A stretch of 64,000 bases of DNA from Branchiostoma lanceolatum (Eukaryota; Chordata; Leptocardii; Amphioxiformes; Branchiostomatidae). Location: NCBI RefSeq assembly GCF_035083965.1, contig NC_089723.1, positions 40,217,322 to 40,281,321 on the forward strand, in the 5' to 3' direction. The position numbers and the translations under genes are program-made. The notes beneath the pieces were generated by a model. It saw only the letters and a list, made by a program, of their open reading frames with translations. It did not search any database and had not been told where the DNA came from. Numbering within the stretch: position 1 is the stretch's first letter; every line of letters starts with the position of its first letter. Positions 7,088 through 63,157 of the stretch are shown in pieces.

Positions 7088-10000
7088 CTATGCCATTTTG
7101 TTAGCGATGGCTTGATGCAGGGACTGGATCTGTTCGCTCCATCTGTCCAGCGCGGTGTATCTGGCGGCGCCGTGCGTACTGCGGTCCAACTCTAGCAGCT
7201 GGTTCACCTGGTCGATACGCCCGTTTATTGTACTGCAGGGAACACAAGGCAACATGGGTTAGGCACTCTGGTCTATACGCCTGTTTATTGTACTGCAGGG
7301 AACACAAGGCAACATGGGTTAGGCACTCTAGTCTATACGCCCGTTTATTGTACTGCAGGGAACACAAGGCAACATGGGTTAGGCACTCTGGTCTATACGC
7401 CCGGTTATTGTACTGCAGGGAACACAAGGCAACATGGGTTAGGCACTCTGGTCTATACGCCCGGTTATTGTACTGCAGGGAACACAAGGAAACATGGGTT
7501 AGGCACTCTGGTCTATACGCCCGTTTATTGTACTGCAGGGAACACAAGGCAACATGGGTTAGGCACTCTGGTCTATACGCCCGGTTATTGTACTGCAGGG
7601 AACACAAGGCAACATGGGTTAGGCACTCTGGTCTATACGCCCGGTTATTGTACTGCAGGGAACACAAGGAAACATGGGTTAGGCACTCTGGTCTATACGC
7701 CCGTTTATTGCACTGCAGGGAACACAAGGCAACATGGGTTAGGCACTCTGGTCTCTACGCCCGTTTATTGTACTGCAGGGAACACAAGGCAACATGGGTT
7801 AGGCACTCTGGTCGATACGCCTGTTTATTGCACTGCAAACAAACACAAACCAAAGGAAGACGGGTTAGGCACTCACCATGGCTTTACACTATCATCACAG
7901 AATCAGCATTACACCAACAAGGGATTTTATAATCAATTCTCACTAGAAATGTCAATAAAAAGAGTACCAAAAGAGCTACACATAAGTTTACAAACAGATG
8001 CCAACATTTTAAATGGTACTGAGAGTGACTGTAGAAGGATGAGCAGAACAGCACCGATACTGACCTGTCTAAAATGCACGAGACCAGCAAACTCTCCACT
8101 TCACTAACATCTATGTTGAGCTCCTGGCGACACAGGAAGGTATCAGGTTTCAGTTACACATCCATTCATTCTCAGTACATGAACACATAGGAGACTTCAA
8201 CCAACAAGACATTGCTCTTAACAGTGCAATGAATCCCTTTATTTCAGCCACATTGACCGGTAGCAACATAACAAGGACTTACATAAAATGCATAAATGGG
8301 CTAAGTACATAATAATATTGCTGAGTTCAAACTTTGGTTGAGAAAAACTTATCAATGTTGGAAAGCCTCTTTTTTAGGCGATAGTTGGTTACCAGTCCCA
8401 CACTTACAGTACCGCTTGCGTTATAGTTGACACGAACTCGCGAGCGGAACGTGTAACCCAAGCGTTAAACAATCATTGTACATAAAAATATTAATAACCA
8501 AATGGCTCACCTTAGCAATGAATGGTATATGGATCCTAGTGTAGGGTTTAATAAGCTTGATAAGAACTTGTGTTCTGATGTTCCTTAGCAGATCTGGCAG
8601 AAAAATAACATTTAATTAACATCCTCTACAAATCATTAGTCAATACATTACTGATACAATACTGTACAATCGCAAAAAGCAAACGTATTCACACCCCTTG
8701 TATTACACTTGACTTGGCAAGTCTGTGAATAATTTTGTTGCTGTCTGAGTGCATGATACAAGATAATACAATAACAAATGTGGGATAACACATTAGATGA
8801 AAGTAATAAAAGCATCATATACAAGATCATTGATCAATGAAATTAATTTCACCGAGAAGAGATATTTAACCTGTCAATATCCACCAACAAAGCTTGGTAA
8901 CAATTCTTACCTTCAATATGTTCTCTGATGAAGGGATCATCCATTATGTTCTTCCTGTAAACAGAACAAAATCAACAGTGAGGGACAATAGATGGCGACA
9001 CTGCACTGTAAACTGTGACATACTTGTATCAAATAAAACATTGGATAAACACAGAGTCGCTTAGTTCCACTTGTGCTGTTAGTGGAGACGGGTGTGACTG
9101 GCACAAAAACGTCCCCAAATAAAAAAGGAACCTTTCATGACCTGTGACTTCTGTACCCACCTATTTGTCTTGAGAATCTTCTCAAACTCATTAATGTCGT
9201 TATTCTGGTAGGCACTGAAACGGAACAAAACAACTTCATTATGGGGACGTGGGTCGGCACTACCTCAGGCAAACAATATCATTATCGGGATGTGGGTCGA
9301 CACTACTTTAGGCCACTGTACAATATTGTAGACCAGTTTATCTATTTCTTTATAGTTACATGTACATGATGAGAGCTCCAAGACTGGACCAAATTCAGAG
9401 TCAATCCTGAAACTGTGAAAGCTTCTAGTGAGCTGAACTACTGTGTTGAGAAGTTTAAACACATCATTAAACGTGTCTTACTGTAAGAATTCAAAACAAC
9501 ACATTTTCACCCAATGACTGTAATGCACACATTACTGTACAACAGCAGATTACAGAAACTGGTTCTCACCTAACTAGATTTGTCATTGCCAGAATCTCTG
9601 GGTCATTCTTGTATGGTTTAGCCTGAAAAAAACATAGACAAGGTCAAAATCATGGTCATGTTTTCTTACTGGACTTAACGATACACTTATCATCTAGCTC
9701 AAGTTAGGAAAATTGGTCAGTCCTTTACACACGACCAGTGAATAATCCAGGCTCAATAAAAATCCCCTGCCAACATTCTGTGTGAAGAGTTTGTTATCCA
9801 CTTTTGTTTTACATTATCCGGACAAAAAACACACACATAAAACAAAGCTGAATTACAAGGACCACAGCAGGTTTTGAAGCTAAAGTTACCTCTTGTGAGT
9901 CGAAAGGGTTGATCCCTGACTTCATGAGCATGTTGGCTAAAACCAGGTACTTCAGGCAGGTAGTTCTCCTGTACAGGTTAAACATGTACATGTCATCATC

Positions 10001-62537: not shown

Positions 62538-63157
62538 GTACAGTCACTACCAGTCACCCTCCAACCTACAGGTACAGTCACTACCAGTCACTACCAGTCC
62601 CCCTCCAACCTACAGGTACAGTCACTACCAGTCACCCTCCAACCTACAGGTACAGTCACTACCAGTCACCCTCCAACCTACAGGTACAGTCACTACCAGT
62701 CACTACCAGTCACCCTCCAACCTACAGGTACAGTCACTACCAGTCACCCTCCAACCTACAGGTACAGTCACTACCAGTCACCCTCCAACCTACAGGTACA
62801 GTCACTACCAGTCACCCTCCAACCTACAGGTACAGTCACTACCAGTCACCCTCCAACCTACAGGTACAGTCACTACCAGTCACCCTCCAACCTACAGGTA
62901 CAGTCACTACCAGTCACCCTCCAACCTACAGGTACAGTCACTACCAGTCACCCTCCAACCTACAGCTACAGTCACTACCAGTCACCCTCCAACCTACAGG
63001 TACAGTCACTACCAGTCACCCTCCAACCTACAGGTACAGTCACTACCAGTCACCACCAGTCACCCTCCAACCTACAGGTACAGTCACTACCAGTCACCCT
63101 CCAACCTACAGGTACAGTCACTACCAGTCACCCTCCAACCTACAGGTACAGTCACTA
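62511..63157. repeat. 34-bp minisatellite spanning the SHC exon 8 donor
   Basis: About 18-19 units of GTACAGTCACTACCAGTCAC plus CCTCCAACCTACAG. The first unit holds the end of the exon (codons HYQSPSNLQ) and the donor CAG|GTACAG at 62537/62538; the same donor recurs in each unit up to 63145. Some units carry an extra TACTACCAGTCAC step. The unit is free of stop codons in all three forward frames, so translation could run from the exon to a TAA at 63156-63158. Confidence 0.95.

What the first reader, a model, noticed from the sequence alone, without database searches (positions are those of the whole stretch)
7213..63157. Recurrent minisatellites that are seeded on exon/intron junctions and multiply splice sites
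In three different genes at least six tandem or partial duplications begin within an exon, cross the splice site and expand into the intron. They involve the cops2 exon 7, 9 and 15 acceptors, the cks1 exon 2 donor, the SHC first coding exon donor, the SHC exon 7 acceptor and the SHC exon 8 donor. Unit lengths (34, 38, 56, 60 bp) and sequences are unrelated, so one mobile sequence cannot explain them; a mechanism that favours junctions is implied. I recall exon/intron-spanning minisatellites being described in amphioxus (called mirages), unverified here, so the class may be known while these loci may not be. Possible causes are R-loops or nicks at splice sites, or selection that tolerates duplications only when one intact copy remains.
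Basis: partly seen in the sequence, partly recalled or inferred. Interest (0 to 1): 0.9.

Follow-up and report, generated by a model that had tools for sequence, protein, structure and literature searches.

The report
Amphioxus tandem repeats straddling splice sites
In this 64-kilobase piece of the amphioxus (lancelet) genome, short DNA repeats have copied the borders between coding and non-coding parts of three genes over and over, making many sound-looking false splice sites that the annotated proteins show being passed over; repeats of this sort were already known in this animal from other genes.

Summary
The window reads as Branchiostoma lanceolatum (shc model 359/359 aa identical to a named protein). 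Models of cops2, cks1 and shc give 47 splice junctions, all modelled introns GT-AG. Six junctions are crossed by repeated units: cops2 exon 7 and 15 acceptors, cks1 exon 2 donor, shc exon 1 donor, exon 7 acceptor, exon 8 donor. The claimed cops2 exon 9 copy is diverged and aligns only inside the exon. Under a strict template 92 of 93 decoys keep GT/AG. The B. lanceolatum proteins seen use the outermost, exon-side copy. The class is published ('mirages'), so these are new members of a known kind. That a mechanism favours junctions is only partly supported: arrays lie nearer intron ends than random placement (threshold-free P 0.004), but the crossing excess is modest and model-dependent, and junction points are no more repeat-covered (6 of 47) than points inside short introns (18.5%). 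An annotated COPS2 isoform of another Branchiostoma has a 15-residue duplication exactly at the exon 7 donor: perhaps a decoy in use, perhaps a prediction artefact.

The parts
7088..14997 (-). cops2 (COP9 signalosome subunit 2), 15 coding exons
   Evidence: spliced model 443 aa, all introns GT-AG; PCI domain E 2e-26; matches P0122 B. lanceolatum COPS2 throughout apart from an N-terminal extension and a 12-aa insert in P0122
7208..7837 (-). 60-bp array across the cops2 exon 15 acceptor (junction 7232/7233): each unit has 35 intron bp including AG plus 25 exon bp
   Evidence: 9 decoy acceptors, 9 with AG, 8 scoring at least as high as the real site
10886..11250 (-). two upstream copies of the cops2 exon 7 acceptor (junction 10927/10928), the nearer with 42 exon bp and a GTTT-type microsatellite
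   Evidence: the pattern requires AG; only one copy passes the strict template
9920..10170 (-). diverged copy (10115-10170) of the start of cops2 exon 9, offset 203 bp
   Evidence: alignment begins at the second exon base, so the junction is not shown to be crossed
21215..26380 (-). cks1 (CDK regulatory subunit), 3 exons
   Evidence: 79 aa, CKS domain E 1e-38; 96% identical to B. belcheri P0241
22566..23285 (-). 56-bp array across the cks1 exon 2 donor (junction 23243/23244): 42 exon bp plus 14 intron bp per unit
   Evidence: 12 decoy donors, 12 with GT, 11 scoring as high as the real donor
38581..62537 (+). shc, coding exons 1-8 (gene continues past the window)
   Evidence: 359 aa, PTB domain E 2e-37; identical to P0001 B. 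lanceolatum SHC isoform X2 over all 359 aa
38941..41731 (+). compound array across the shc exon 1 donor (junction 39012/39013): a 72-bp exon tail copied again, 68/52-bp and then 38-bp units with donors
   Evidence: 59 of 59 units of 39451-41729 keep GT
61623..62107 (+). higher-order repeat with six upstream copies of the shc exon 7 acceptor (junction 62084/62085)
   Evidence: the pattern requires AG; four pass the strict template
62511..63167 (+). 34-bp array across the shc exon 8 donor (junction 62537/62538): 27 exon bp plus 7 intron bp per unit
   Evidence: 17 decoys, 16 with GT; P0001 continues PSNLQ-ASDGVY, i.e. the first donor is used in that model
9228..9313 (-). 43-bp x 2 duplication ending 13 bp upstream of the cops2 exon 11 acceptor (not crossing)
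9980..10045 (-). 34-bp duplication ending 11 bp upstream of the cops2 exon 9 acceptor (not crossing)
11925..12031 (-). 55-bp duplication ending 11 bp upstream of the cops2 exon 6 acceptor (not crossing)
55938..56015 (+). 26-bp x 3 array ending 8 bp upstream of the shc exon 3 acceptor (not crossing)
56608..56670 (+). 36-bp duplication ending 9 bp upstream of the shc exon 4 acceptor (not crossing)
56801..57041 (+). 11-bp-based array starting at the second intron base of the shc exon 4 donor

Best explanation
These are amphioxus 'mirages': small tandem duplications that straddle a splice junction and then grow by unequal exchange or slippage. Shown here: unrelated units; donors and acceptors both affected; decoy splice dinucleotides nearly all intact; and, in the two B. 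lanceolatum proteins seen, use of the outermost, exon-side copy. Inferred: (1) the first event is a DNA-break repair duplication (staggered break, fill-in, end joining) in transcribed introns that are unusually prone to it; (2) duplications inside exons are purged because they damage the protein, while a straddling duplication leaves one complete exon edge and survives; (3) the spliceosome passes over decoys because only the outermost copy adjoins a full exon (exon definition), not, at most junctions, because decoys are weak; (4) a decoy may occasionally be used, lengthening the exon end.
For: Six of 47 junctions crossed, by unrelated units. GT/AG kept in 92 of 93 decoys under the strict template, with decoy medians equal to the real site for E15, K2 and S8; in the four long arrays 1 of 202 splice-dinucleotide bases differs from consensus. 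The B. lanceolatum SHC and COPS2 proteins read straight through with the exon-side copies. Nine two-copy duplications picked have span minus twice the period of -13 to +5, so no long homology at their ends, as fill-in and end joining would give. PMC8355091 (passages read) reports that small tandem duplications at breaks with complementary 3' ends arise mainly by CST-dependent end joining, and that those made by the microhomology-using route show microhomology much more often. COPS2 isoform X1 of B. floridae x B. japonicum repeats [12 protein letters not shown] with GKL between, exactly at the exon 7 end. Published mirages share the anatomy, and RT-PCR in globins suggested regular splicing.
Against: No RNA or long-read data were available; the protein models are annotations and may be guided by similarity. 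At shc exon 1 most decoys score well below the real donor (median 5.8 against 11.0), and the one E7 decoy scored is weaker too (7.1 against 13.5), so strength may matter there. In the S8 array the only changed base is a donor G. PMC3902484 describes a predictor that turned lancelet repeat copies into an exon without transcript support and was overruled by the authors; the P0121 duplication could be the same kind of artefact. The break-repair origin rests on nine duplications with eroded ends. Arrays end near intron ends more often than random placement predicts, which a purely random intronic origin does not explain.
Confidence: 0.6

Rival explanations
1. Splice junctions, or the intron ends next to them, are true hot spots of duplication, for example through co-transcriptional R-loops or nicks linked to splicing, so that arrays are seeded there more often than elsewhere in the intron.
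For: 13 of 22 intronic clusters overlap or lie within 15 bp of a junction (expected 3.8-4.6 with a 72-bp cap, P about 6e-7, distance post hoc; without a cap expected 4.4-8.0, P 4e-6 to 0.009); threshold-free P 0.004, and 0.006 for the 14 non-crossing clusters alone. At 15-50 bp into the intron 12 of 47 junction flanks are covered, falling to 8-9 of 47 at 100-150 bp. Points in introns outside shc intron 1 are 17.8% covered against 2.6% outside the three coding spans. A second species seems to have a mirage at another junction of the same gene.
Against: Crossing itself is only mildly in excess and vanishes (P 0.7) if unlimited exon overlap is allowed in the footprint model; for introns under 1 kb crossing is 3 of 8 against 2.0-3.0 expected and the threshold-free P is 0.23 (72-bp cap). 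Junction points are less covered than points inside short introns (6 of 47 against 18.5%). Single window, brought forward because it looked striking.
Confidence: 0.25
2. The arrays are functional: they are kept because multiple splice sites or a long repetitive intron regulate splicing.
For: Decoys are almost never broken (92 of 93).
Against: Homogenisation explains intact decoys: in S8 33 of 34 columns, in K2 51 of 56, in E15 53 of 60 and in S1 28 of 38 show no change, splice site or not. No duplication is seen at the E7 donor here while a relative's protein suggests one.
Confidence: 0.05
3. Assembly artefact.
For: PMC3902484 reports different copy numbers between assemblies for lancelet repeats; PMC3087553 reports a mis-assembled mirage.
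Against: Arrays carry unit variants and higher-order structure; the PGBD5 repeats were confirmed by re-examined Sanger and new Illumina data. Copy numbers here remain untested.
Confidence: 0.04
4. Intron creation in progress by duplication of exonic AG|GT segments (Rogers model).
For: Each shc exon 8 unit holds CTACAG|GTACAG, both an acceptor-like and a donor-like end; PMC3087553 proposes this model for mirages.
Against: No new intron was shown: the arrays sit at one end of introns whose other end is not repeated (for exon 8 the other end lies beyond the window). Newness was not tested.
Confidence: 0.06

Closest known systems
Amphioxus mirages (Adh3, Canestro et al. 2002, not held, known here through PMC3087553; globins BflGb6 and BflGb9, PMC3087553, passages read; PGBD5, with TnC cited, PMC3902484, passages and one section read)
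   Same: Tandem units of roughly 10 to 160 bp that span exon-intron boundaries, donors or acceptors, at different genes, with splicing apparently undisturbed.
   Different: Other genes (cops2, cks1, shc); six crossed junctions in 64 kb; more units (59 at one donor) than the 2-7 quoted for globins and PGBD5 (copy numbers at Adh3 not seen); an apparent mirage at the cops2 exon 7 donor in a relative whose annotated isoform uses an inner donor.
Intron gain by tandem duplication of AG|GT segments (Rogers model, from PMC3087553 passages; PMC4974935 and PMC2891723 seen only as search listings)
   Same: Tandem duplication multiplies splice-site-like sequence.
   Different: No new intron is shown here; the duplications extend existing introns.
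Small tandem duplications from end joining at overhanging breaks (PMC8355091, passages read)
   Same: Tens of bp, head to tail, little microhomology.
   Different: That work is in mouse and human cells with induced breaks; the link here is inference.
Introners (PMC9860276, start of abstract in a search listing only)
   Same: Repeated sequence connected with introns.
   Different: Introners are elements copied into many genes; here the units are unrelated.

Membership tests
Amphioxus mirage | Tandem repeats that cross an exon-intron boundary | tested here: met
   6 of 47 junctions crossed by at least 3 bp on both sides
Amphioxus mirage | Found in a Branchiostoma genome | tested here: met
   359/359 aa identity with B. 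lanceolatum SHC; the N-terminal MRLAGCELARKSK of P0122 can be read just upstream of the cops2 ATG (translated by eye)
Amphioxus mirage | Mature mRNA spliced normally despite decoys | tested here: inconclusive
   Annotated B. lanceolatum SHC and COPS2 use the exon-side sites; for cks1 only a B. belcheri protein (96% identity); no RNA seen; other isoforms in the clusters not seen. P0121 of another Branchiostoma suggests decoy use or a prediction artefact
Amphioxus mirage | Repeat length varies between alleles or somatically | not testable with these tools
   one haplotype only; no genome held, no reads
Amphioxus mirage | Concerted evolution of units | tested here: met
   in the four long arrays variation is confined to few columns: 1 of 34, 5 of 56, 7 of 60, 10 of 38; no tree of units was made
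Intron gain by tandem duplication | A newly created intron at a site where relatives have none | not tested
   no orthologous genomic DNA was fetched
Introner | Similar sequence at many introns | tested here: not met
   16 units of this window, no shared match longer than 10 bp at E up to 1, apart from AAAC-type microsatellites at two loci

The most novel reading that the evidence does not exclude
Intron ends in amphioxus are hot spots of break-induced tandem duplication coupled to transcription or splicing, so that mirages form again and again at different junctions of the same gene in different species, and occasional use of a decoy lengthens exons in frame (as COPS2 isoform X1 suggests). 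That would make a DNA-level mutational footprint of splicing testable genome-wide.
Probability: 0.2. Interest if true: 0.8.

Novelty: new member of a known kind. Interest (0 to 1): 0.48.

Why it matters
In one 64-kb window intact decoy splice sites outnumber the 47 real ones and, at three of the junctions, mostly equal the real site in strength, yet the annotated proteins seen pass them over. That is a natural experiment on what besides sequence strength selects a splice site. If array edges prove to lie nearer intron ends genome-wide, it would point to a mutational process tied to transcription or splicing and give a measurable route to exon-length change and possibly intron gain.

Tried and rejected
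Considered and rejected: one mobile element as the source (units unrelated). Selection erasing decoys (1 of 202 splice-dinucleotide bases changed in the four long arrays; that one is the only change in the whole S8 array, so erasure there cannot be excluded). Weak decoys as the general reason why they are passed over (false for E15, K2 and S8; possible for S1 and E7). A fixed breakpoint at the junction (exon share of the best duplicated segments ranges from 23 to 72 bp). The 12-aa insert of P0122 between exons 1 and 2 looked like decoy use but is an ordinary upstream acceptor of exon 2 that can be read in the window (by eye), with no repeat there.

Weaknesses: the seed-placement model compares uncollapsed distances with collapsed intron lengths for shc intron 1, so its all-cluster threshold-free figures (Fisher 0.011, Stouffer 0.93 at the 72-bp cap) are not used; the footprint figures are. 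One search lists 35 clusters; 22 were tested. Dropped: nine outside the three coding spans and four intronic pairs with offsets over 300 bp (24089, 24169, 59617, 60772); 84 low-complexity segments of 6540 were removed before clustering. One nested cluster (9980-10045) is counted in the 22 and removed in side tests. The nine two-copy duplications were picked by me; 33618, 37137, 43128 and 47173 were left out. Copies at S7 (six) and E7 (two) were found with patterns that require AG.

Searches that led nowhere: Pfam on seven long open frames (no hits at E 0.01). The listings of the ten paper searches showed no genome-wide test of tandem arrays at splice junctions; none of these searches used cops2, cks1 or shc as a term, and the library holds open-licence papers only.
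Full report
What the window is. Protein comparison and exon building give three genes: cops2 on the minus strand (15 coding exons, 14997-7088), cks1 on the minus strand (3 exons, 26380-21215) and shc on the plus strand (coding exons 1-8, 38581-62537, continuing beyond the window). All 23 introns between modelled exons are GT-AG, exon 8 of shc ends at a GT, and the spliced frames are open. 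Pfam finds PCI, CKS and PTB domains. The shc model is identical over 359 of 359 residues to P0001, SHC-transforming protein 1-like isoform X2 of Branchiostoma lanceolatum, and the peptide MRLAGCELARKSK that begins P0122, COPS2 of B. lanceolatum, can be read directly upstream of the cops2 ATG. The window is therefore taken to be B. lanceolatum. No whole genome is held for it.

Are the repeats there? Yes. An ungapped self-comparison with a score cut-off of 18 gave 6540 segments against none in two simulated sequences. Of 47 junctions (23 acceptors, 24 donors), 6 lie inside a repeated segment with at least 3 bp on both sides. At cops2 exon 9 a copy of about the first 55 exon bases stands 203 bp upstream, diverged, and its best local alignment begins at the second exon base; this may be an old mirage, but crossing is not shown. 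Six further duplications end 1-13 bp from a junction without entering the exon: at the acceptors of cops2 exons 6, 9 (a 34-bp duplication) and 11 and of shc exons 3 and 4, and at the shc exon 4 donor.

Anatomy. The exon share of the best duplicated segment differs: E15 25, K2 42, S8 27, S7 23, E7 42, S1 72 bp. The junction therefore sits at no fixed phase of the unit. At the shc exon 1 donor the exon tail is copied in longer blocks and a 38-bp form reaches 59 units; tandem clusters span 14,238 of the 16,697 bases of that intron. Units at different loci are unrelated: among 16 units no shared match exceeds 10 bp at E up to 1, and the only unit with matches elsewhere in the window at E 1e-3 is the E7 block, through its AAAC-type microsatellite, also present at S1.

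Decoys. With a strict template (at most 5 mismatches in 24 bases for donors, 34 for acceptors) there are 93 decoy sites at the six junctions, 92 with an intact GT or AG (E15 9 of 9, E7 1 of 1, K2 12 of 12, S1 50 of 50, S7 4 of 4, S8 16 of 17). By a small position matrix built from the 24 donors and 23 acceptors of these genes, decoys equal or exceed the real site in 8 of 9 (E15), 11 of 12 (K2), 16 of 17 (S8), 2 of 4 (S7), 8 of 50 (S1) and 0 of 1 (E7). The matrix is small and includes the real sites themselves. At S1 most decoys carry a G at position -2 and score lower. In the four long arrays 1 of 202 splice-dinucleotide bases is changed; most other columns are unchanged too, so homogenisation is the simplest reading. 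The one change, a donor G, is the only change in the S8 array.

Which site is used. P0001 runs from PSNLQ (end of exon 8 at the first donor of the array) straight to ASDGVY, and through exons 1 to 8 without any repeat-derived residue. P0122 agrees with the cops2 model across exons 7, 9 and 15. For cks1 I saw only a B. belcheri protein. So in these annotations the outermost exon-side copy is used: the 5'-most for donors, the 3'-most for acceptors. For acceptors this means that decoys transcribed earlier are passed over, which fits exon definition; this step is inference. The other members of these protein clusters, isoforms included, were not seen.

A second species. P0121, COPS2 isoform X1 of a B. 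floridae x B. japonicum assembly, contains [15 protein letters not shown] followed again by [12 protein letters not shown]. [12 protein letters not shown] is the end of exon 7 in the window model, and GKL is what reading into a GTAAG-type donor would give. The window has no duplication at that donor at the score used. I read this as an independent mirage at another junction of the same gene whose annotated isoform uses an inner donor. It is a database protein model; the DNA and RNA were not seen. There is a warning precedent: PMC3902484 describes a predictor that turned most of two lancelet repeat copies into an exon without transcript support, which the authors excluded.

Statistics. One search lists 35 clusters; 22 are local (offset at most 300 bp) and lie in introns of the three genes. 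Seven overlap an exon, the exon 9 cluster included: expected 2.66 (seed model, P 0.0072) or 3.73 (footprint model, P 0.037) when up to 72 bp of exon may be overlapped; 1.9-2.1 (P 0.0009) if only 30 bp; 3.3 (P 0.023) and 7.5 (P 0.7) without limit. Thirteen overlap or lie within 15 bp of a junction: expected 3.8-4.6 with the 72-bp cap (P about 6e-7), 3.1-3.2 with 30 bp (P 2e-9 to 3e-8), 4.4-8.0 without limit (P 4e-6 to 0.009); the distance was chosen after seeing the data. For introns shorter than 1 kb crossing shows no excess (3 of 8, expected 2.0-3.0), nearness does (8 of 8, expected 2.8-3.7, P 0.0002-0.001). A threshold-free combination with footprints gives P 0.004 for all 22 and 0.23 for the 8 in introns under 1 kb (overlap up to 72), 0.00006 and 0.03 (overlap up to 30), and 0.006 for the 14 clusters that touch no exon. 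Against the hot-spot idea, 6 of 47 junction points are covered by local repeats, compared with 18.5% of points in introns shorter than 1 kb and 48.8% of all intron points; at 15-50 bp into the intron 12 of 47 flanks are covered, at 100-150 bp 8-9 of 47. Introns as a whole are rich (17.8% outside shc intron 1) compared with 2.6% of the rest of the window, which may contain unannotated genes. The window was brought forward because it looked striking, so all P values flatter the effect.

Mechanism. Nine two-copy duplications picked have span minus twice the period of -13 to +5: no long homology at the ends. That fits fill-in and end joining, described for small tandem duplications in mouse and human cells in PMC8355091 (passages read), better than an origin by crossing over between long repeats, which would act later to enlarge arrays. 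Exon interiors are poor in duplications (7.5% of points more than 20 bp from exon ends, presumably the crossing segments), as purging of damaged reading frames predicts. I put about 0.6 on the combined account: break-repair duplication in repeat-prone introns, survival of those that leave one exon edge whole, then expansion; and about 0.25 on a true junction or intron-end hot spot.

What is known. Mirages were named in amphioxus Adh3 (Canestro et al. 2002, not held; known here from PMC3087553), reported in globin genes (PMC3087553, passages; it also cites retinol dehydrogenase and presenilin papers for similar structures, seen only in its reference list) and in PGBD5, with TnC cited (PMC3902484, passages and one section). 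These papers already state that both kinds of boundary are affected, that splicing seems undisturbed, that length is unstable and that intron gain may follow. The listings of my ten paper searches showed no genome-wide test of arrays at splice junctions. None of them used cops2, cks1 or shc as a term, and the library holds open-licence papers only, so I cannot say that these loci are unreported.

Verdict. The claim of a junction-favouring mechanism stays open: suggestive in distance, not in coverage.

Noticed in passing
39013-55709: Tandem clusters span 85% of shc intron 1 (14,238 of 16,697 bp), with arrays of 16, 42, 25 and 34 bp units (the last about 218 copies) that do not touch a junction.
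   Followed up: partly
56801-57041: The array at the shc exon 4 donor holds 14 copies of CTTACCT on the coding strand, the complement of a consensus 5' splice site, which as RNA resembles the 5' end of U1 snRNA (U1 sequence recalled). It could mask or mimic donor recognition.
   Followed up: no
P0121 (COPS2 isoform X1, B. floridae x B. japonicum): A 15-residue in-frame duplication exactly at the end of exon 7, read as a mirage at that donor with an inner donor used in the annotated isoform; a prediction artefact is possible.
   Followed up: partly
14089-14124: P0122 includes [12 protein letters not shown] between exons 1 and 2, which can be read just upstream of the exon 2 acceptor: an alternative acceptor unrelated to repeats.
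   Followed up: yes
10115-10170: The diverged copy of cops2 exon 9 keeps much of the protein sequence ([16 protein letters not shown]), with mostly synonymous differences (by eye).
   Followed up: partly
63159-63800: An open frame of 214 aa right after the shc exon 8 array looks by eye like the 3' end of a LINE reverse transcriptase; no Pfam hit at E 0.01.
   Followed up: partly
whole window: Local tandem repeats cover 17.8% of intron points (outside shc intron 1) but 2.6% of points outside the three coding spans; intron-specific repeat richness may be the broader phenomenon.
   Followed up: partly
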